From Tubulanus polymorphus (lineage: Eukaryota; Nemertea; Palaeonemertea; Tubulaniformes; Tubulanidae): a stretch of 64,000 nt of DNA. The notes below the pieces were generated by a model. It saw nothing but the letters and a program-made list of their open reading frames with translations, ran no database searches and was not told where the DNA came from. This document shows, in pieces, positions 3,284 to 13,619 of the stretch; position 1 is the stretch's first letter, and every line of letters starts with the position of its first letter. Location: NCBI RefSeq assembly GCF_964204645.1, contig NC_134029.1:9970850-10034849 (forward strand). The letters run 5' to 3'. Both the position numbers and the translations under genes were made by a program.

Positions 3284-3700
3284 TTGAATTCGAATACTTC
3301 GTTTTTGTTTTCACAGATACGCAGATACACACGATTTGTGAAATCTAGAGGCCAAGAATGCCTTGCGGTCAATTTGACTGAAATGCCTCCCATTGAGGGC
3401 TTAGATATAACCGCTTTGAGGAGGATGACAGTAGAATGTGGTGGCAGGAAACAAGAGATGGGCATTTGTGGATATTTTCGCATCGGCGAGTTATTACCCA
3501 GGGCTCTTGCCTCAGCGGGGGACGTGATACAGCTTCGAGATGTCGCCGTCACCCCTTCTGGTCTTCAGATTATCGTACGCAAATTCAAACATAGCTCTCG
3601 CGTTGGCCCGCAGGTCATTCAGGCCGAATATTCGTCGCTACCCGTAGACATGGATTTGACTCTCATTATCTCGGATTATTTACGTTTCAGAGGGCCCCTC
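3284..3700 (+). pseudogene. Tyrosine recombinase (phage-integrase-like) fragment
   Basis: The frame contains IRRYTRFVKSRGQE, then ICGYFRIGELLPRA, then DVIQLRDVAVTPSGLQIIVRK. This matches the start of a tyrosine-recombinase catalytic domain: a helix carrying the first catalytic Arg (here in FRIGELL), then a D-V step and a beta-hairpin ending in the conserved Lys region. Animal sources of this fold include DIRS/Ngaro retroelements and Crypton DNA transposons. The H-x-x-R and Tyr boxes that should follow are absent, because similarity stops near 3700 where the duplicated segment begins. It is therefore truncated and inactive as drawn. A spliced arrangement is possible, since CACAG lies just upstream at 3313-3317. 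The fold is fairly secure; the element class is not. Confidence 0.5.
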
Positions 3701-3744
3701 CCTTGCTCATCAACATTTTTGCGACCGAAACGAACCGAGCGCTT

Positions 3745-3997
3745 TGCCAGGCGCCTCCAGCTGGTGGCGCCGCCAATATCTCTTTGTTCTCTCAGCCAAT
3801 CACTGTTGAGTACAAGTTCCTTTCTCTTCCGCATCCCGAGCGTGAAAGGTTACGTTTTATTTTTGTCCTTATTTACCCCAAATAATACATGCCAGGCACC
3901 TCCAGCTGGTGGCGCCGCCAATATCTCTGTTCTCTCAGCCCATCACGGTTGAGTACAAGTTCCTTTCTCTTCCGCATCCCGAGCATGAAAGGTTACG
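3745..3997. repeat. Tandem duplication, period 145 bp, interrupted by the Penelope-like insertion
   Basis: A unit beginning TGCCAGGCGCCTCC at 3745 recurs at 3890. Each copy contains a near-palindromic GC-rich core, GGCGCC-t-CCAGCTGG-t-GGCGCC (3751-3772 in copy 1). Copy 2 is cut after 3997 and resumes at 5099. Copy 1 therefore shows what the empty insertion site looked like. Confidence 0.8.
3985..3997. repeat. Left copy of the 13-bp target-site duplication
   Basis: ATGAAAGGTTACG here is repeated exactly at 5086-5098, flanking the Penelope-like insertion. Confidence 0.85.
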
Positions 3998-4033
3998 ATG
4001 AGACGAGAAGATACACAATATCCGTGTAAGAAG

Positions 4034-4076
4034 ATAACAAGAGAAATCCCACAATAAGTTCAGCCAAAACGAGAAA
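4034..4076. repeat. Left arm of the Penelope-like inverted repeat (right arm 5045-5087)
   Basis: The 43 bases are the reverse complement of 5045-5087, apart from possible ambiguity at the last two bases, which overlap the target duplication. The arm lies immediately before the truncation point of the coding part. Confidence 0.9.
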
Positions 4077-4077
4077 A

Positions 4078-4659
4078 ATTAACAAATTAGCTTACCCCGA
4101 CGACATTTTGAATAAAGCTCTCTTGAGAGCCCGTCGTTCACATTTCAGTCACTCTCAAGGGACCCGCGCGCGTAAACAGCCTATTATTGTACCTTTTGTT
4201 CCTTTTCTGGAAAAATCTAAAACTCCCCTCCATCTCTTAAACAAACAACTCATTTTTACTTATAACAACAAACTTAGTCGTAATCTTACTCATAACTCCC
4301 CCAAAATTGAACCCCTGAACATTGGTGTATATAAAATTCCCTGTAAAGTTTGTAACAAAATATATATCGGCGAAACCGGACGCGATTTACACAAGCGCAT
4401 TCGTGAACATAAGAATGATGTAAAGAATTTTAAGCCTGAAAGCGGTGTTGCTAATCACGTATACGAAACCAGCCACAATTTTGATTTTGAAAAAGCCTCC
4501 ATAATTTTCCCCTGTTCAGAAAAGATTAAACGACACATTATGGAATCGGCCCTGATTATTGAAAACTTGGAAAATTGTGTTAATTTGAATAACGGTTTTT
4601 CCCCCCACAACATTTTGATCTCCAAATTTCTCGCTTCTCTTGTACCCCCGTTATACTAA
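4078..4659 (+). CDS. GIY-YIG endonuclease domain of a Penelope-like element (N-terminally truncated ORF)
   Basis: This is the endonuclease end of a Penelope-type polymerase, the part thought to nick target DNA for target-primed reverse transcription. The frame is open from YPDDILNKALLRARR (about 4099) to the TAA at 4657-4659; an internal ATG lies at 4108. Counting from that ATG, the GIY equivalent GVYKIPC is at about residues 73-79, a C-x2-C zinc pair at 79 and 82, YIG at 86-88, the catalytic-type Arg within RDLHKRIREHK near 97, and the conserved Glu in MESALIIE near 140-147. The preceding reverse-transcriptase domain is absent, so the ORF cannot make an autonomous element. The frame itself has no stops, which suggests a fairly young copy. 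Confidence 0.88.
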   Translation: MNKLAYPDDILNKALLRARRSHFSHSQGTRARKQPIIVPFVPFLEKSKTPLHLLNKQLIFTYNNKLSRNLTHNSPKIEPLNIGVYKIPCKVCNKIYIGETGRDLHKRIREHKNDVKNFKPESGVANHVYETSHNFDFEKASIIFPCSEKIKRHIMESALIIENLENCVNLNNGFSPHNILISKFLASLVPPLY

Positions 4660-4980
4660 TTCCCTCATTGTTTTGCCTTTATCATAGTTTGCTTGTTTCC
4701 ACTCACTCACTGATTATCGCCTTTCATGTTCCTTCTCTTTGTTTTATTTGATTACCCCTTAGCTTGTCCTCCCGTTTTAATCTCTTTAGCTTGTGTCTTT
4801 GTTTATTAATTACTTTAATCTACATTGCCCCTAGTTTGCCTTGCTTACTTTAGCATTGTTTTCTAGTTGTTATGTCATTACTTTAATCTATTCCCCTTTC
4901 AATATTTTAATCACTCACTCTGCTTCTATTGTTTTGGTCTTGTATAAATATCTTGTAATATTCTCCTGTACTCAGTACGC

Positions 4981-5010
4981 CTGATGATGGCTAATAGTCT
5001 TTAGCCGAAA
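4981..5010 (+). ncRNA. Hammerhead-ribozyme-like core in the Penelope 3' region
   Basis: CTGATGA (4981-4987) is followed by GGCTA (4989-4993) pairing with TAGCC (5002-5006), then GAAA (5007-5010). This is the order of the two conserved boxes and stem II of a hammerhead ribozyme. Hammerheads are reported in Penelope-like elements of many animals. One unpaired T precedes stem II, and I cannot place stem III with its cleavage site, so this copy may be an inactive relic. Confidence 0.4.
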
Positions 5011-5187
5011 CGTTGCGCAAATATATATAACTCTTCTATTCAAGTTTCTCGTTTTGGCTGAACTTATTGTGGGATTTCTCTTGTTATGAAAGGTTACGTT
5101 TTACCACCCACCATTTCCTTCCTTAGCACCTTTCGAATTGGTGGCATTTTCTGAGCCCACTTTGACGTATTCACTCATTAATTAATT

Positions 5188-5446
5188 AGGTCAAATAGCT
5201 AGGGCGTTTGACTTCGTTTATATTACGTAACTCTGTATTATTCATCTCCATAACTAGGTCAAAACAGCTAGGGCGTTTTGGCCATAATTTTATGATTTTA
5301 TGTTTATAATATCATTGTCTAAATATTAGTTAATAAGTTTGTAATGGTTTTTTTTTGTATACGTCAAAAACAGCTAGGGCGTTTTTGACATTTCTAATTT
5401 TTATGTTTTGTATATAATAAACGTCAAGCAGCTAGGGCGCTTGGCC
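5188..5446. other. Array of four hairpins sharing the invariant 9-nt loop AGCTAGGGC
   Basis: Four inverted repeats each enclose exactly AGCTAGGGC. H1 has stem 5190-5196/5206-5212; H2 5257-5265/5275-5283; H3 5363-5371/5381-5389; H4 5423-5429/5439-5445. Stems are 7, 9, 9 and 7 bp, built on GTCAA…C/G…TTGAC. They vary in length (AAA, AAAA, AAAAA) and sequence (GC next to the loop in H4), with matching changes on both arms; H1, H2 and H4 each have one G·T pair. The intervening DNA is AT-rich and unrelated between units. I know of no family with this arrangement. It lies between the Penelope insertion and a CR1-type ORF1, so it could be a transposon 5' structure, a recombination substrate or an RNA element. 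Confidence 0.8.
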
Positions 5447-5542
5447 TTTTCATCCAAATATGTCTTCGGGTCGTTTCTGTTGCAAAAATAATGCTGTCGT
5501 TCAAATGTCGAGTAAGTGTGAATAAACAATATATAAAGTATA

Positions 5543-5896
5543 TTGAATGCTATTATGTATGACTGTCTATCATTTCATAATAACTTTTTAGCGGGATATA
5601 ACGGTGATATAAGGGCAAAAAGACGTTCACTTATACCATGCTCATCATTTGCGGAGAGCATTTTGATAAAAATTAATAAAGGTAAGATAAAGAATTCACA
5701 GGCATACTTATTGATATTTATGATGGCGTGTCATGGCAGAAAGTACGGACTGCACGTAAAGCTCAGCGAAGGAAAAATATCACTGATACGCGATAGAGAA
5801 ATACGATTGTTACTCGACAGATATAATCGTAAGCTATATATTTGCTACATACGTGGTTTGTGTCTTATTATTGCTCTCGACACTAAAAGCGTGTGA
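5543..5896 (+). CDS. Open frame of 117 codons, unrecognised
   Basis: The frame begins 97 bases after the last hairpin and ends with TGA just upstream of the CR1-type ORF1. The predicted protein is basic and hydrophobic (segments such as LLIFMMACHGRKYGLHVKL and REIRLLLDRYNRKLY), with no motif I recognise and no signal-peptide-like start. A chance frame in AT-rich DNA or a transposon 5' leader is possible. Its only merit is its length and its place between the hairpin array and ORF1. Confidence 0.25.
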   Translation: MNAIMYDCLSFHNNFLAGYNGDIRAKRRSLIPCSSFAESILIKINKGKIKNSQAYLLIFMMACHGRKYGLHVKLSEGKISLIRDREIRLLLDRYNRKLYICYIRGLCLIIALDTKSV

Positions 5897-5948
5897 TCGA
5901 AGATTTCGAAACGCCGAACGAAGAAGCCGAGGAGCTCACTTAACCAAT

Positions 5949-7681
5949 ATGGCGTCGCACATTGTCCGTAGCCATTGCTGTACTTCCTCGGACTCCAAAG
6001 ACATGATCGAATGTAACATATGTAAACTTTGGGTGCACTTTAGCTGCACTGGTCTACCTGGTTATCAATTGTTTAACCTTGCCACAACTCATAGGAAGTA
6101 CCAATGTATGAACTGTACCGATATTCCATCGGATTCCGAATTTCTCCAGCAGCCATTCCCGGTAAACGTTGCTGTACAGCCATGTGCTGATTTCGCTGTA
6201 CAGACTGAAGAACTATCGTCAACATGTGTTGCCATTCAAACTGATGAGATATCGCTACTTCCGTGTAGGCCTATCACCGGATTAAAAACCTCCAACTGTG
6301 GAACCCAAACTGATATCATCACTGATGGCCTAACTGAGACCCTGATAACGTCGAACGCTATCCTACAGTCGACTGTCAGAGAGTTTGAGGCAAAGCTGCT
6401 TCAAAGACTCACGAATGCTAGTCTCGAGAATGAAAAATTGAAGTTGGAGCTTGCAAATAAAGAGATTAGCGAACTTAATAACCATATTGCAAAATTAAAA
6501 TCCAAAAGAGCAACCAACTCGTGCTCCAATTGTTATGTGCTGAAAAGGTGCGAGGTCTGTCACTTAGAAATCTGATGAATTGAACCGCATAGTCGAGAAA
6601 TACACTTCCGGGATTTGTCAGCTCAGAGAAGAAATTCTCCTGAAAGGGGAGGTTGTGTTGAGAGCACAATCAAACTTCAGATGAACAGTTCTTGGATCTT
6701 GCGACAGCGAACAGGTTATTAAAAGATCATGTAAAAGAGATCGATGATCTTCGTTGTCGAATAAAAGCGTCCGAGATTCGGGAAGATTCGGAACAAGAAC
6801 TTAAAAAAGCGAGAAAGACTATCTCTGACCAACATAGAAATACAACTATCTGCCGAGTCAAGCTCTGAGCCATTCAAGCCAGTTCTGAATAATAAACGAC
6901 GTCAACAATCGAATACAAATACCGAACCAAGAGTCAGTCCCTGATATCACCGGTTCGGAAAACCACCAAAGTCACTGATGTTCTTATCGTTGGAAATTCC
7001 CATACCCGAGGTCTTGTGGCATCAAAAATGTTCAGACACAAAAAATGCGACATCTCGACACTATCTGATAAAACTATTAGGGGTGCAACGAACTACGTAA
7101 CGTCGAGTCGTCAACGAGTGAACATAATTGTTTTACACGTCGCGGATAACGATCTAGCCAATGGGAGTGCTGACCTCTGTTTTACAGAAACGGAGAAACT
7201 AGTTAATGTCTGCAGGGAAACCTTCCCAGATGCGAAAATCTGTATCTCGTTGCCTCTGTCGAGAAACTGTGCAAGCTACAATAAGACCTGTGCTGATTAT
7301 TCTACCTCTGTAAAGAAATTGGACGGGATTCATACCATTGAACACCATTTGGATCGTAAGTTACTTGCTGAGGATGGAATTCACCTCTCTGGACCTGGCG
7401 TCGCTGCTTTTGTGAGAGGCCTCAAAACTGTTTTGAACCCTCTTCTTGGACTTAATCCGACCAATTATACCAGACCTACCGAACATAGGCCGACCAACAA
7501 TCGCACTCAGTTCCGTGGAAATATTCGATATAATATCAACTCTCGTTCATCCAACTCTCGTTCCGTCCCGAATGACAGATTCAACAAACCTGGCAGATTT
7601 TCTGGTAACCACTCGACCAATAACCGAGGTCGCGTGCAGTTGATGGATCTCCTCAATGCATTATTAACTGCTCTACTGTAG
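5949..7681 (+). pseudogene. CR1-type LINE ORF1: PHD finger, coiled coil, SGNH esterase
   Basis: The start is taken at the ATG at 5949 (context ACCAATATGG). The first part carries a C4HC3 PHD-like finger: HCCTSSDSKDMIECNICKLW, then VHFSC, then YQCMNC. A Cys/Thr-rich spacer and a Leu/Glu/Lys-rich coiled coil (about 6340-6520) follow. After a break at 6573-6960, the frame 6960-7681 shows SGNH-hydrolase blocks: GNSHTRG (nucleophile Ser), HVADND and DGIHLSGPG (Asp/His). A basic, Asn/Arg-rich tail ends the frame. This domain set is that described for esterase- and PHD-containing ORF1 of CR1-like retrotransposons; the protein would bind LINE RNA and help retrotransposition. The 6573-6960 gap contains stops and frame changes, and no ORF2 follows, so the copy is incomplete. 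Confidence 0.75.
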
Positions 7682-7719
7682 ACCCGTTCAACTCAACCGA
7701 CATAACTGTGTGTAAACTT

Positions 7720-7870
7720 TGTTACGAGTATTGTGTTAATATGAAGTATGGAATCTAACCATAGGTCTTTAACGTATGGGATCTAACCTTTGGTATATAG
7801 CAATAAACTGTATTCGTTAGTTTAATGGCGTCTCTGCTTGTCATTACTTGGAATTCTCACATCACAAACA
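7720..7870 (+). repeat. Probable 5' LTR of the gypsy element
   Basis: A TGTTACGAG start at 7720 and an ACA end at 7868-7870 bracket about 150 bp containing the polyadenylation-like AATAAA at 7801-7806. TGGTGTCAGAAG follows at 7871 and has the form of a primer-binding site. The 3' partner LTR is missing, so the boundaries cannot be confirmed by comparison and the left edge could be some bases off. Confidence 0.5.
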
Positions 7871-7990
7871 TGGTGTCAGAAGTTATTAGGGAACTTTCAA
7901 GCTGGTTAAAGGATGCGGAGATAGAGGAGATGATATCCTTACATCACTACGAATACCGAGGCAAGTAGGTAGTCGTTGAAACAACACTGA

Positions 7991-8740
7991 ATCAAGTGGT
8001 TTGAAGCGAAGCTCTCCGAACCGGAAGTGAAGAGACGTGTGTACGTGGCAGTATTGAATTTGCAACTGTACTGTACTACTGTACTGGAAAAAATGTTAAC
8101 AGCGACTGAGAGAAAGGATTATGATAAAATAATTCAAGAATTGGAAAGCTATTTTGTTCCCCTGTGCAATGAAATCTACGAACGTTTTGTTTTTGGAAAT
8201 TACACACAAGGAAATGACTCAATCGATGCGTATGTTATTCGACCTCGTAAGTTGGCATCTACTTGCAACTACGGCGATAGAACCGATGAGCAGATCAGAG
8301 ACAGGTTAGTCATTGGTGTGTCGAGTAAAAGCCTACAAAAGAAACTGTTATGTGAACGGAACTTATCACTAAATAAGGCAATTGAGATAGCGAAGGCGTC
8401 TGAAACTGTTACAGAGCAGGTCGATAGATTAGGAGCCTGCGAGGATGTCAAACGTTTTACTTCAAGTAAGCCAAAACGTTTCAGTAAGCCACCAGTATGT
8501 AAATATTGCGGTTCAGCACATCAGAAAGGCAAATGCCCAGCGTATGGAAAAAAGTGTAATAACTGTTCGAAATTAAACCATTTTGCATCTGTTTGTCAGC
8601 AGAAATCGAACAAAGCAGCACATAGTACAAGGGCTCCAGCGAAATATATTGATAAATCTCGTGAGAAACCGGTACGTCAAGTCAAGTACGAATATGACAG
8701 CGAGGAGTCGATTTATAAGATTTCGACGGAAATCGTAATA
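7991..8740 (+). CDS. Gypsy gag with two CCHC zinc knuckles
   Basis: The frame opens after a stop at about 7988. It begins KWFEAKLSEPEVKRR and continues through a helical capsid-like part (ESYFVPLCNEIYERFVFGNY, RDRLVIGVSSKSLQKKLL) to tandem zinc knuckles. These are CKYCGSAHQKGKC (C-x2-C-x3-H-x4-C) and CNNCSKLNHFASVC (C-x2-C-x4-H-x4-C), followed by a basic tail. This is the structural protein that packages the element RNA. The N-terminus is damaged by stops upstream of 7988. After about 8740 the frame runs past the protease start in the wrong phase; pol continues in another frame. Confidence 0.8.
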
Positions 8741-8751
8741 CGTATAATGTA

Positions 8752-9054
8752 CTTATTGGTGTGGAAAACCCGGATGGAAAAAAAGTGTCGATTAGGGCGC
8801 AGATTGATTCAGGTGCTAGTTGTAGTACGATGCGGCTTGCCGATTTACGCAGAATTATGGGTACAGCAGACCCAATTATGCGCGCTACTACAACGACCCT
8901 GCGTATGTACAACTCCGCTCCGTTGAAACCAGTCGGTTGCGTGAGTTTGTATTGTGAAGCGAAAAATGGAGTTAAAAGAAAATACATGTCGAGGTGGTTG
9001 ATAATGTCGATATTACATTGTTATCGGGTAACACCTGCAAAGCGCACAAATTAA
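8752..9054 (+). pseudogene. Gypsy aspartic protease region
   Basis: The frame reads VENPDGKKVSIRAQIDSGAS, where D-S-G is the catalytic triad signature of retroelement aspartic proteases. The usual hydrophobic strands follow (LKPVGCVSLYCEAKNG). A frame change near 8990 links it to the pre-RT segment. Confidence 0.75.
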
Positions 9055-9960
9055 TATCGTTCAATAAACCGCTACCTGTAAATAAAGTCAGTGCGGTGAA
9101 AAGTAAGGAACAAATTCTCGAGGAATATCAGGATGTATTCCAAGGTCTTAGTAGGATGGAAGGCAAATATCACATAGAGCTTGTTCCAGATGCGAAACTG
9201 GTACAAAATAGTCCACGTCGGGTACCGATTCCCGTAAAGGATTGGTTAGAAGAAAAGTTATCAGAACTGTGCACTCGTGAAATTTTGACTAAGGTTGACG
9301 AACCTTCCGATTGGATGTGAAGCTATTCTCGATTCTTGACGTGAGAGAGGGTTTCTGGCATATTGAACTCGATGAGGAATCTTCGAAATTGACTACGTTC
9401 TGGACACCGTCTGGTCGTTATTGATGGCTCCGAATGCCATTTGGTTTAGCGTCTGCACCGGAGGAATTTCAGCGACGTTTAGGCATGGCGTTAGAAGGTT
9501 TAGAAAATACGGCTAAAATCGCAGATGATATCTTAGTGTGGGGCTCGGGTAAGAACCCCGAAGAGCTAAACGAGTCTCATGATCATGCGTTCGAAGCTCT
9601 AATCATCAGGTGTAGAGAACGAGGTATTACATTAAACTAACCGAAACTCCGCTGTAAGAAAACGAGTGCTGTATATTGCGGGAACATCATAAGCGATGAA
9701 GGGTTAAAGCCCGACCCTGAAAAAATAAGCGCAATCACGGAGATGCTGCTTCCGGAGTCAGTTCAAGCCTTCAGCGATTATTGGGTATGATCACATATCT
9801 TTCTAAATTTCTTAAGACGACTGACCGACAAAAATGCGATATGTGAATGGCAGGATAAGCACGAAAAGGCATTCAGTAACGTGAAAGAGTTGTTAACCCA
9901 GGCACTGGTCTTGTCCTATTATGATGCGCTAAAAAATTCAGTATTGAGTGCGATAGCTCA
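8994..9960 (+). pseudogene. Gypsy reverse transcriptase, internally deleted
   Basis: The pre-RT segment KEQILEEYQDVFQGL…RVPIPVKDWLEEKL runs to 9317. It then joins directly to FSILDVREGFWHIELDEESS, skipping the segment of roughly 60-80 residues that normally carries the VVVxKxxGxxRxCxD region. MPFGLASAPEEFQRRLGM follows, and then the catalytic box as IADDILVWG, with the usual aromatic position replaced by Ile or Ala around the D-D pair. Stops occur near 9423 and 9640. The deletion alone would abolish polymerase activity. Confidence 0.8.
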
Positions 9961-10296
9961 CAGGTAGGATTGGGGGCAGGGCTGTTTCAAGATGGCCACA
10001 CAACCGCATATGGATCGCGAGCACTATCCCAAACGGAGCAAAACTATGCTCAAATAGAGAAAGAATGCCTGGCGATAGTATTTGCGGCAGAACACTTCGA
10101 ACAATATATACTAGGGAAGGCTGATATTACTGTATACTCAGATCATAAGCCATTAATGACAATTTTTAAGAAATCTATTCTAAAAGCTCCGAAGCGACTA
10201 CAGCGTATGCGACTGCGTCTGCAGAAGTTTGATATTCACGTGGAATACAAGCCAGAAAACAAATGCGCGTATCCGATAAATTTTGTGTTTAGTTAA
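9961..10296 (+). pseudogene. Gypsy RNase H domain, 3' truncated
   Basis: The frame contains GAGLFQDGHTTAYGSRALSQ, EKECLAIVFAAEHFEQYILG and ITVYSDHKPLMTIFKK, the standard Ty3/gypsy RNase H blocks, with the E and D metal ligands present. It runs into unrelated sequence after VEYKPENK, where a protein leading to the integrase would normally continue. Confidence 0.8.
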
Positions 10297-10299
10297 TCA

Positions 10300-10645
10300 A
10301 AATGTTTCTTCAATCGACATCATCAATTTGCAATATCCTCCTTTCAAATTCCGCAATATCCTCCTTTCATTGAATGAGAACAAAATCATCAAATTCCATT
10401 TTCAAACGTTCTTTGATTATCAATTATGTTGACAATTTTTTGGCTCACAATATATAGTATTAACAAAGAATATGGATTCTATAGATTTTGGTTGGTAATT
10501 GTTTTTGAAAGAATTTTGCATTGAGGAGTTTTTTCATTGATTACGGTATGTATTTCATATATTATTCATTCTATACATATATCACTCATATTTACAGACT
10601 ATCTATCTTATCAATTCCAGTTTGTCTTCGAGAGCATGACGAAGA
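10300..10645. other. AT-rich non-coding gap
   Basis: No frame is recognised. CAATATCCTCCTTTCA is repeated directly at about 10331 and 10354 (a short tandem of about 22 bp). Confidence 0.4.
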
Positions 10646-10649
10646 TGCG

Positions 10650-11346
10650 ATAGAGTGCCGTTTGCCGTGGATGCAATCAATGCGCAGAAAACGTTTTTGA
10701 TTATCACCAAGGCCTTGACAGATTAGCGTCCGCTGCTTGGCGCGGCTTTAAAGCTATGAGTACCGCTGTCATTTTGGAGAAAGTTCTGATGGATGCGAAT
10801 TTATTGTACTCGGAGCATCAGGTTCCATTACGAATACACGAATACTCCGAAAGTTTATTATCAAGCGAGACCATGAAACCAATTGATGTTTCTGCGAACG
10901 GTGACTGTTTATTTAACTCTGTGTCTGTAGCACTCGTGGGGGACGAATCCATGAGCAATCAACTTCGTTTACGAACAGCAGTGGAGTTGATGATTAACTA
11001 CAAACACTACAGGAATCATCATCTATATAATCAATTCCGATTGGTATCGCCTGATTTGGAGGATGCTATTCTAGATTGTGCTCGCCCTGGAGCATATTTG
11101 TCGATGTAATGGGCCTATCATCTGTGATTTGGCGAGTCATCAAAACAGTGTATCCGGCAATGAATGGTATTGTTGACAATAGCATACCGATATTAAATTC
11201 AAATATTTGGCCACGTGAATCCACAGCGAACGACGGATGCGCGATCACGGTGATGTGGACGAAAGTCAGAAACCGAGGAGACTCCCAACGAACGTGGATT
11301 CCGGACTATTTTGTACCACTTTTACCAGCGGAGAGATTTCTAAATT
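10650..11346 (+). pseudogene. OTU/vertnin-like domain exon
   Basis: The upstream part reads CRGCNQCAENVFDYHQGLD, then the OTU nucleophile box ANGDCLFNSVS (N-G-D-C in place of D-G-N/D-C), a helix RLRTAVELMINYKHYR, and RPGAYLSM. A shift of frame near 11100 continues as WRVIKTVYPAMNG, NIWPRE, ITVMWTK and WIPDYFVPLLP, which matches the C-terminal part of vertnin-like OTU domains. The usual catalytic His (…N-H-F-V-P-L) is Tyr here (D-Y-F-V-P-L). OTU domains cleave ubiquitin chains; the lost His and the frameshift argue against activity in this copy. Confidence 0.55.
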
Positions 11347-12043
11347 GTAAGTTACATTCGATCTTGTGTTTTTATCGCATGATTATAATTGAATGAAACT
11401 TAAGTCAATCATGATTTTCAATGCAATCATGATTTTCAATAACTTTCAATGCATTTTTGAGTCAGAGATAACAAACTCCACACTTCAGGACAGGAAGCAC
11501 AGCCGATCTCTTTATATAGTGAGTATATCGGATTACCAATATCCTTAAAAATCTAATTGTTTCATCCATTTGCCTTAATTTCATTTACATTGGTTTGTTT
11601 TAGATTATCTATTAGAGCAACTATCCAAGAAAGGCCTCCTAAATAGGTTGGTCGAAACTGCTAGGGAAAAAAGGGAGCTGGGCAAAGAACTACTAAGATA
11701 CAACACTAAATGTGAAAAAACCAATGAAGCATCACGAGTGCACATGTAACTTGTGGCGAAAGTTGGAGGCAGGCTTGAGGATATTGTTCAAAAGTTGATG
11801 ACGTTAGACAAGAGACTCAGAGGTGATGCGCGAGCGGGTATAGATTTAGTCAACATGATCTTGAATCAATTGCCAAGATCCACAATCTAAACACCGAAGG
11901 TAAGCTGTTAGGTCTCTATTCATTATATTTCCATTTTACAAAATACCTTAGATTTTTACAAAATGTAACAAATAATCCGATGAACATATATAGGCTATAT
12001 ATACATTATATATATATATATATATATATATTGCATGTTTCAG

Positions 12044-12820
12044 ATTTTGAACATAATGTTTCTCGGGATGAAAGCAATGTTTGCAGTAACTGTTCCTCGG
12101 ATAACCTTCTTTCAGTTAATGGTTGTGATATTATCAATATATACATTTTTTACGTTTATTATCAATATTCGATCATTTTTCAGGACTGCCGGAACCTCCT
12201 AATGAAGACCAAAAGTTGAAAGACAATACGCCAGACGAACAAAACCTCTCGGAGGACAATTCATCGGATAACTGTTCCTCGGATAACCTTCTTTCAGTTA
12301 ATGGTAAGTGATATTATCAAACTGATTGCTATTTTTTTTATCAATGGAAAAACTACGTTTTTTTAAACGTTTATTATCAATATTCGATCATTTTTACAGG
12401 ACTGCTGGAACCTCCTAATGAAGACCAAAAATTGAAAGACAATACGCCAGACGAACAAAACCTCTCGGAGGACAATTCATCAACGAAGACCAAGCCGAAC
12501 TATACCAAAGGTAAGCGTTTCATAAATTCTTCATCTTAATTCTACAGCATATATAATAACAACGCCAAATGATATCGTTCTTTTCTTATCAGAAATTTCA
12601 GATTTTCTTGCTGAATCCGACAATGATTTTGCAATGCCTTGCAACAGCACAGGTTAGTGTCTAGGCCTAGGCTACTTTATACAACGGTTTATCATGAGAA
12701 TAGATGAATGGCTATATGATAATAAAAAACTTTGTTATTTTAAAGGCATTTCACCGCCATCACCACCAGAATTGAACGAGTCAATTATTGTTGAGAAAAT
12801 CGCAGCAATTATTTCGGATG
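12044..12820 (+). repeat. Tandemly duplicated linker exons
   Basis: The end of exon 3 (12088-12121) recurs at the end of exon 4 (12270-12303), offset 182. The start of exon 4 (12184) recurs at the start of exon 5 (12400), offset 216. Both encode near-identical acidic peptides (LPEPPNEDQKLKDNTPDEQN and LLEPPNEDQKLKDNTPDEQN). All exons here are symmetric and a multiple of three, so unequal crossing-over would keep the frame. Coding sites look better conserved than the intron between the copies. Confidence 0.7.
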
Positions 12821-12994
12821 GTGAGATTCCATTTTAATTTTGCGTCGATTCTATTCTACCCTAAAACGGAAACGGATTACAAGAAGCGCGTGTCCTTCCA
12901 CGTTCGATACTCACGTTAGAAATATAGCGATCATTGAATATCTAGGCGAAGCACCTCCGTTCAGTGAAACGCATGAAATACAAAAAAGGGGGCG

Positions 12995-13619
12995 GGGATT
13001 GATTATGTAAGGACAACTGACTCTGTTATGGAAAAAATAGCTGAAAAAAGTGTTACTCAGCCAACGCGCGATGTACATAATAAACTATGTTTGATTGAAC
13101 AGTTTGTTGCATTTTCCAAGAAACTTGAAGCAGGTTCAAAATGTTCATCCTCGCGAAAAAACGAAAAATAATACTGGACATATATTTATCGGCCCTCTGT
13201 TTCTACATTGGGACGGGGAAACCGAAACCTATCAGCATTTCTTCTCACACATCAAAGGGAAGCTTGACTCAGCAATAACATCAACTGAAATCGGCTACAG
13301 TGAATCTCTGACTTTCGGTTCGGATGAAGAAAAAGCGCTACTTAAGGCGGTGAAAGAGGCATTCCCCTCCGCTAATCAAATATTATGTCACCGGCACCTT
13401 ATTGAGAATGTAAAAAGACATTTGTTGCACAAAACTGGTGTCAACAATAAAGTTAAAGATAAGATAGTCGATGCGATATTTGGTAAAAGTGGAGCGCTGC
13501 ATCAGCATGACGAATTCAACTACGAACAAAAAATGATTGAAATAAAAGCAGACATAATGGAATCAGCACCAGAGTTTATAGCTTATTTCAATAAACTGGA
13601 ACCGCGACTAAAGCAGTAG
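12995..13619 (+). pseudogene. MULE-like transposase core
   Basis: The frame 13095-13619 includes FIGPLFLHWDGETETYQHFF, then LTFGSDEEKALLKAVKEAFP and QILCHRHLIENVKRHLL. This is the layout of the MULE RNase H-like transposase core: a second catalytic Asp in the '(T/S)D-x-E-x-A-L' segment and the conserved C-x2-H (here CHRH) that follows. The protein would cut and join transposon DNA. The first catalytic Asp region is not clearly present, as the start of the domain is lost or frame-shifted near 13095. After the TAG at 13617 coding fragments go on in other frames (FMELYNQGNFEIVSKLKSN near 13800). Confidence 0.6.

What the first reader, a model, noticed from the sequence alone, without database searches (positions are those of the whole stretch)
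5188..5446. Four hairpins with an invariant 9-nt loop and compensating stems
Four inverted repeats within 260 bp all enclose exactly AGCTAGGGC. The stems differ in length (7, 9, 9, 7 bp) and sequence but always stay paired, with G·T pairs in three of them. H4 replaces A-T pairs by G-C next to the loop on both arms. A loop kept letter for letter while stems drift together is the signature of selection on structure plus a loop recognised by something. Spacer DNA is not shared, so this is not a simple tandem repeat. Possible roles are an RNA bound by a protein, a recombinase or replication-initiator substrate, or a transposon 5' structure. No family I know matches.
Basis: partly seen in the sequence, partly recalled or inferred. 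Interest (0 to 1): 0.9.

Follow-up and report, generated by a model that had tools for sequence, protein, structure and literature searches.

The report
Hairpin array in a retrotransposon tail
A jumping gene of the Ngaro type carries, near its tail end, several copies of one small folded hairpin whose tip stays nearly the same while its sides change together, possibly a tag by which the element's own proteins recognise its RNA.

Summary
The four hairpins are real, at the stated coordinates. They are not a 5' structure of the ORF downstream. They lie in the terminal B repeat (window 5141-5488) of a decayed Ngaro-type tyrosine-recombinase (YR) retrotransposon that runs left of them and is interrupted by a Penelope-like insertion. 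Fuller copies in the same genome read A1-[SGNH, gag-like, RT, YR]-B1-A2-B2, with hairpins in the B repeats on the sense strand, just 3' of YR.

The '9-nt loop' is better read as a bulged A, two G-C pairs and a tetraloop: C-A-GC-[U/A][A/G]GG-GC-G. Three element families share it. Hairpin columns are 88% identical between two families, spacers 55%; stems change length and sequence on both arms together. The last hairpin follows AATAAA in better-kept copies of all three. A more distant family lacks this hairpin but has its own hairpin in 3-5 copies, placed before the direct repeat; that argues against recombination sites and for RNA.

Best explanation: repeated RNA hairpins in the 3' region, read by an element-encoded protein to pick its own RNA. 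The structure is well supported; the reader protein and the function are inferred. A probable annelid relative lacks the array.

The parts
3458..3702 (+). Fragment of the tyrosine recombinase (YR) gene of the same Ngaro-type element
   Evidence: the genome search with the family-2 YR protein: C5:9974307-9974609 = window 3458-3760, 54% identity over residues 177-281; cut here at the start of the A repeat
3703..3859 (+). A repeat (piece)
   Evidence: 96-97% identical to A1/A2 of L030
3890..3997 (+). Second A repeat piece
   Evidence: 91% identical to A1/A2 of L030
3998..5086 (+). Penelope-like insertion (GIY-YIG ORF 4030-4659) splitting the A repeat; not part of the Ngaro element; bounds approximate
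   Evidence: PF01541 GIY-YIG 29.2 bits, cut-off 22.6; TGAAAGGTTACG on both sides and inverted ends
5087..5140 (+). End of the A repeat and linker to B
   Evidence: 96% identical to L030 A2 plus linker
5141..5488 (+). Terminal B repeat of the Ngaro-type element; ends TTGCAAAAA
   Evidence: 97% identical to B1 of L030 over 351 columns
5188..5214 (+). Hairpin H1 (cap 5197-5205; closing pair U.G in this copy)
5257..5283 (+). Hairpin H2 (cap 5266-5274)
5363..5389 (+). Hairpin H3 (cap 5372-5380)
5416..5421 (+). AATAAA, possible poly(A) signal just 5' of H4
   Evidence: read; same place in L031 and L047
5423..5445 (+). Hairpin H4 (cap 5430-5438)

Best explanation
The hairpins are a cis-acting RNA array in the 3' non-coding region of Ngaro-type YR retrotransposons. 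Shown by computation: they lie on the sense strand 3' of the YR gene, in the B repeats; their arms co-vary in sequence and length; their cap (bulged A, GC:GC, URGG or AGGG) is nearly constant across three families; the last one follows AATAAA in better-kept copies. Inferred: in the element RNA each hairpin shows the same cap, several copies give avidity, and an element-encoded protein (the Gag-like protein or the RT) binds it to select its own RNA for assembly or reverse transcription. A distant family with a different multi-copy hairpin in the same part of its 3' region suggests that lineages keep private recognition signals.
For: Full anatomy A1-ORFs-B1-A2-B2 with four hairpins per B. Pair beside the closing C-G is A-U, G-C or C-G in 6, 3 and 2 of 11 hairpins. 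Own-arm pairing sum 77 against a permuted mean of 44.6, reached by 4 of 200,000 permutations. Stems of 23, 25 and 27 nt total grow by matching A and T on both arms. Families 1 and 2: hairpin columns 67 of 76 identical (22 gapped), spacers 163 of 298 (36 gapped). Non-Watson-Crick cells on the sense strand are 17 G.T against 3 A.C. 101 genome-wide pattern matches against 0 for the reversed pattern. Family 4 has its own repeated hairpin between the YR stop and the direct repeat. LINE proteins strictly recognise their own 3' stem-loops, with loop specificity (PMC4176376, abstract). The Gag-like protein ends in a Cys/His cluster conserved in its single homologue.
Against: No binding, expression or probing data. 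The reader protein is a guess; Pfam finds no zinc finger or other RNA-binding domain in the Gag-like protein. Of the five covariation measures, the numbers of pairs with two-sided changes and of further pair types are reached by 149 and 197 of 500 shuffles. Many of the 17 G.T cells are one inherited U.G. In context, family-2 H1 and H2 are predicted to pair with each other rather than alone, and L051's last hairpin forms with probability about 0.25. Three of four family-3 hairpins in L047 fold no better than shuffles. Old copies have broken stems. The Escarpia relative has no array. Family-4 hairpins fold at only z -1.4 to -3.2.
Confidence: 0.5

Rival explanations
1. Host-facing RNA elements: hairpins bound by a host factor for 3' end formation, nuclear export, stability or translation of the unspliced element RNA.
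For: H4 sits directly after AATAAA in the window, L031 and L047, and AATAAACGTCA..TTGGCC is kept in the Escarpia relative without the cap.
Against: Only H4 is tied to AATAAA; a sister family in the same host uses a different hairpin, which is less expected if a host protein reads it.
Confidence: 0.22
2. DNA sites for the tyrosine recombinase: inverted arms with a constant spacer, or folded single-stranded sites as in integron attC.
For: YR is encoded next door; a constant spacer between inverted arms recalls YR core sites (recalled). L018 joins the left flank of H1 to the right flank of H2, as recombination between caps would; template switching or annealing would do the same. L010/L030 and L009 carry extra A-B units.
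Against: The element's insertion joint is at the A/B ends, about 43 bp beyond H4. Arm spacing varies from 23 to 27 bp overall, which would turn the half-sites against each other in double-stranded DNA. In family 4 the array is outside the direct repeats in 3 of 3 loci where the repeats are seen. G.T exceeds A.C on the sense strand, 17 to 3, though largely by inheritance.
Confidence: 0.13
3. Relics without function of the structure: locally duplicated palindromes that are still similar because they are young.
For: Hairpins of one array share arm letters and some flanking letters, so local duplication is likely.
Against: Spacers of families 1 and 2 are 55% identical while hairpins are 88%; arms change together; the cap persists in family 3, whose YR fragment is 38% identical to family 2.
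Confidence: 0.1

Closest known systems
Ngaro retrotransposons (YR retrotransposons, DIRS order)
   Same: Split direct repeats A1-ORFs-B1-A2-B2, RT and YR, an SGNH ORF, no methyltransferase match (layout from passages of PMC4157794, PMC8547959, PMC9210276)
   Different: A multi-copy hairpin array in B (or just before it in family 4); SGNH ORF comes first, whereas PMC9210276 describes it after YR in amphibians; no such array named in the papers listed, judged from titles and abstracts, nor in the passages seen of PMC4157794, PMC8547959, PMC9210276 and PMC3266345
3' stem-loops of stringent LINEs (ZfL2, UnaL2)
   Same: 3' RNA stem-loop with recognition of the loop by the element's own protein (PMC4176376, abstract)
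   Different: There tied to a LINE ORF2 and target-primed reverse transcription (partly recalled); here several copies, in a YR element, with no protein shown to bind
MS2/R17 coat-protein operator hairpin and dispersed packaging signals of RNA viruses
   Same: Bulged A, two base pairs, then a tetraloop (MS2 shape recalled); many hairpins with one cap motif and variable stems (abstract listing of PMC7612645)
   Different: Different sequence and no known homology; a likeness of shape only
Integron attC sites
   Same: Hairpin-forming inverted repeats acted on by a tyrosine recombinase, with extrahelical bases (recalled)
   Different: Here not at the insertion joint, and outside the repeats in a sister family

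Membership tests
Ngaro retrotransposon | Split direct repeats A1-[ORFs]-B1-A2-B2, inner repeats downstream of YR | tested here: met
   L029 and L031 self-comparison; L030 has A1..B1 A2 B2 A3 B3. The window copy itself is a remnant
Ngaro retrotransposon | RT(-RNaseH) followed by a tyrosine recombinase | tested here: met
   RVT_1 46.1 bits (cut-off 29.6) and Phage_int_SAM_1 27.1 (22.3); RNaseH-like RVT_3 (14.0) and Phage_integrase (14.4) are below their cut-offs; 443 proteins match YR at E <= 0.001
Ngaro retrotransposon | No methyltransferase domain | tested here: met
   No methyltransferase among Pfam matches at E <= 0.1 in the four ORFs of L029
Ngaro retrotransposon | Insertion without target-site duplication | tested here: met
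   One site joined: flanks of L030 give an open LINE RT frame with no duplication
Ngaro retrotransposon | Placement with Ngaro in an RT or YR tree | not tested
   No tree was built; reference Ngaro sequences were not at hand
Rfam RNA families | Match at the gathering score | tested here: not met
   0 matches in the 64-kb window
LINE-type 3' recognition stem-loop | Bound by the element's own RT protein | not testable with these tools
   Needs binding assays
YR core recombination site | Lies at the crossover used for integration | tested here: not met
   Joint is at the A/B ends, about 43 bp beyond H4

The most novel reading that the evidence does not exclude
Each Ngaro lineage carries a private hairpin code: a multi-copy array of one RNA hairpin in its 3' region, swapped for an unrelated hairpin in sister lineages of the same host, read by its own Gag or RT. 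It would work like an operator or packaging-signal array and explain how YR retrotransposons select their own RNA.
Probability: 0.33. Interest if true: 0.7.

Novelty: new variant of a known kind. Interest (0 to 1): 0.5.

Why it matters
How YR retrotransposons recognise and copy their own RNA is, as far as I recall, unknown. A compact, repeated, covarying hairpin with a near-constant cap, and a different one in a sister family, gives a concrete RNA ligand to test against the element's Gag-like protein, RT and YR. If confirmed it would extend strict RNA self-recognition, shown for LINEs, to the DIRS order, and give a marker for finding and sorting Ngaro elements by their RNA.

Tried and rejected
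Rejected: 5' structure of the PHD/SGNH ORF (that ORF is outside the element). Rejected: simple tandem repeat (Tandem Repeats Finder lists no array at 5188-5446) and known RNA families (0 Rfam matches). Rejected: viral relatives; three IMG/VR stretches match the stem-plus-cap pattern once each, and two of them carry the same sequence, so I read them as chance. No YR relative in viral contigs. Genome contigs gave two contigs, both in an Escarpia laminata endosymbiont bin and probably worm DNA (inference). Neither holds the hairpin (best E 1.2); L036 ends inside YR, so its 3' region is not visible.

Weakened: I first read H4-like hairpins of L041, L042 and L049 as bulged NNGG caps, but the fold gives stems with a triloop, so I do not count them as the same hairpin. 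wrongly counted one phage hairpin (L032); the corrected count is, where 4 of 29 distinct hairpins were dropped from the pair count (three bulged H3 forms and one broken H3). Its 121 instances overlap, since some loci share DNA (for example L020/L029, L010/L030, L023/L031).

Clusters: the 100 listed of 101 pattern matches form 34 clusters. 29 were fetched; 27 lie in Ngaro 3' sequence (by BLAST or by eye; L055-L057 are single-hairpin remnants), 2 do not (L052, L054). 5 were not fetched (C4:20712649, C6:3253360, C8:2348069, C8:3161560, C12:9425331); all five match family 2.

Not informative: the MS2 paper looked at (no passage on the operator's shape); the paper searches.

Full report
Observation. 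The window holds AGCTAGGGC four times, all at 5197-5438 on the + strand, where shuffles expect 0.06. Each copy is enclosed by complementary arms of 9, 9, 9 and 7 bp with G.T allowed. Pairing each 5' arm with its own 3' arm is the best of 24 arrangements, 34 against 26 for the next. Folding as RNA shows a finer shape: the arm closes with C-G (U.G in H1), then a bulged A, two G-C pairs and a UAGG tetraloop. The finding is real and correctly placed.

What it belongs to. A search of the window's own genome (G000, 267.8 Mb) with 5150-5480 gave nine further close matches at 94-98% identity, some about 567 bp apart, and a more distant set 640 bp apart. Fetched DNA shows the hairpins just 3' of a tyrosine recombinase gene. 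L029, read on its reverse strand: 118-bp satellite; A1 1788-1978; SGNH ORF; 54-bp tandem repeats; gag-like ORF; RT; YR; B1 7441-7829; A2 7826-8016; B2 8085-8469; satellite. Pfam finds RVT_1 and Phage_int_SAM_1 above their cut-offs; the SGNH (GDSL), RNaseH-like and Phage_integrase matches are below theirs. This is the Ngaro layout as given in passages of PMC4157794, PMC8547959 and PMC9210276. Joining the flanks of one family-1 copy restores an open LINE RT frame without target duplication.

In the window. A YR fragment begins at about 3458. A-repeat pieces follow at 3703-3859 and 3890-3997. A Penelope-like insertion with a GIY-YIG ORF is flanked by TGAAAGGTTACG. Then come the rest of A and the linker (5087-5140) and the B repeat (5141-5488), 97% identical to B1 of L030. 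The element ends near 5488. The PHD/SGNH ORF at 5787-7681 is outside it and does not match the Ngaro SGNH protein. So the hairpins are a 3' feature of the element on the left, not a 5' feature of the ORF on the right.

Families. Family 1 (window, L009-L014, L030 and others) has mostly AGCTAGGGC. Family 2 (L020-L027, L029, L031) has AGCTGGGGC, and AGCAGGGGC in its second hairpin. Its third hairpin varies between copies: GTCAATCC/GGTTGAC in most, and GTCAACC, GTCAATC or GTCAAACC against GGTTGAC in single copies. Family 3 (L047, L048, L051, L053), whose YR fragment is 38% identical over 91 residues, has the cap four times in L047, twice with other stems (TTGC/GCAA and GTTaC/GcAAC). Three of these four fold no better than shuffles; intact H3 stems with one changed cap letter each are in L051 and L053. 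The family-1 and family-2 YR proteins are about 55% identical (L013 locus).

Is it selected as structure? The pair beside the closing C-G is A-U, G-C or C-G in 6, 3 and 2 of 11 hairpins. 99% of cells pair, and 0 of 500 shuffles reach the covariation score; but 149 and 197 of 500 reach the numbers of two-sided pairs and of further pair types. Ten hairpins of three families pair with their own arms to a sum of 77 against a permuted mean of 44.6; 4 of 200,000 permutations reach it. Stem length grows by matching A and T on both sides. Between families 1 and 2, aligned hairpin positions are identical in 67 of 76 (22 more gapped) and spacers in 163 of 298 (36 gapped); hairpin columns were defined on family 2, so family-1 H3, which sits elsewhere, counts as spacer. 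Over 25 of 29 distinct hairpins, 175 stem cells are 150 Watson-Crick, 17 G.T, 3 A.C and 5 other on the sense strand; many of the 17 are one inherited U.G. Dead copies do break stems. In context, the window's H3 and H4 stems form with probability about 0.99 and 0.79, H1 and H2 about 0.3 and 0.46; family-2 H4 forms at about 1.0, but H1 and H2 are predicted to pair with each other.

Genome-wide, the pattern CAGCNRGGGCGNTTG has 101 matches against 0 for the reversed pattern. The 100 listed places form 34 clusters. Of 29 clusters fetched, 27 are in Ngaro 3' sequence and 2 (L052, L054) are not.

A sister family with another hairpin. Loci with more distant YR matches (L039, L040, L043-L046; 31-58% identity over the matched parts) give no match to the hairpin model. 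Their 3' regions carry GAGGgcCAGA-loop-TCTGCCTC in 3 to 5 copies by one regular expression, in 6 of 6 loci. The five typed copies all fold as hairpins, at z -1.4 to -3.2. In L039 they lie at about 174-617, between the YR stop and a direct repeat (702-899 and 1172-1369, 100% identical) that I take for B1 and B2. In L043 and L045 the array also lies before such a repeat; in L040, L044 and L046 no such repeat was seen in the stretch fetched. The array is therefore outside the direct repeats where these are visible. A genome search for one form of this motif gives 5 matches at up to 1 mismatch beside these YR genes, 1 at 1 mismatch and 3 at 2 mismatches elsewhere, and 1 for the control.

Another species. 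The only named relatives with DNA were two contigs of an Escarpia laminata endosymbiont bin. L035 keeps AATAAACGTCA..TTGGCC where H4 would be, without the cap, and has no array. A larger stem just after the YR stop is shared with families 1 and 2. The array is thus not universal in Ngaro-type elements.

Mechanism. Sense orientation, 3' position, structural conservation and the sister array outside the repeats point to RNA. The insertion joint is about 43 bp beyond H4, so a recombination site is less likely; one copy (L018) joining the outer flanks of H1 and H2 could reflect recombination or template switching. I propose that the Gag-like protein or RT reads the cap. The Gag-like protein ends in a Cys/His cluster conserved in its single homologue, but Pfam sees no known domain there. 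LINE proteins read their own 3' stem-loops strictly, with specificity from the loop (PMC4176376, abstract). The reader protein is inference. A host factor acting on 3' ends or export is the main rival.

Novelty. Searches of the held library for Ngaro with stem-loop and with hairpin list 3 and 9 papers, none on such an array by title and abstract; most subscription papers are not held. I class it as a new variant of a known kind.

Noticed in passing
L031 near 7294-7345; L030 reverse strand near 6699-6750; L035 4399-4455: A larger stem just after the YR stop (GTGGGCT..AGCCCAC with an inner stem) is shared by families 1 and 2 and, with paired changes (GTGGGGT..ACCCCAC), by the Escarpia relative.
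   Followed up: partly
window 4980-5012: CTGATGATGGCTAATAGTCTTTAGCCGAAAC in the Penelope-like insertion looks like a hammerhead ribozyme core (motif recalled); Rfam gave no match at the gathering score.
   Followed up: no
L029 and L031 flanks; L020 to L023 downstream: Family-2 copies L029 and L031 sit inside an array of a 118-bp satellite, which suggests site preference of the recombinase.
   Followed up: no
L029 B1, beside H1: In B1 of L029 a stretch of about 20 bp next to H1 is inverted relative to B2, perhaps by template switching at the hairpin.
   Followed up: no
L010/L030 and L009: Family-1 copies carry extra A-B units (three and two B repeats in tandem), as repeated recombination at the A/B joint could make.
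   Followed up: no
L041 108-180, L049 reverse strand near 1236-1210: Another YR lineage shows hairpins with a shared loop TATCGGT (two in L041, TTACGGT in L049) right after the YR end; possibly a third lineage-specific hairpin.
   Followed up: partly
window 7740-10300 and 10654-13619: A decayed gag-pol-like element (RNase H match strong, gag and zinc-knuckle matches below cut-off), then an OTU-like ORF (below cut-off) and a MULE transposase ORF.
   Followed up: no
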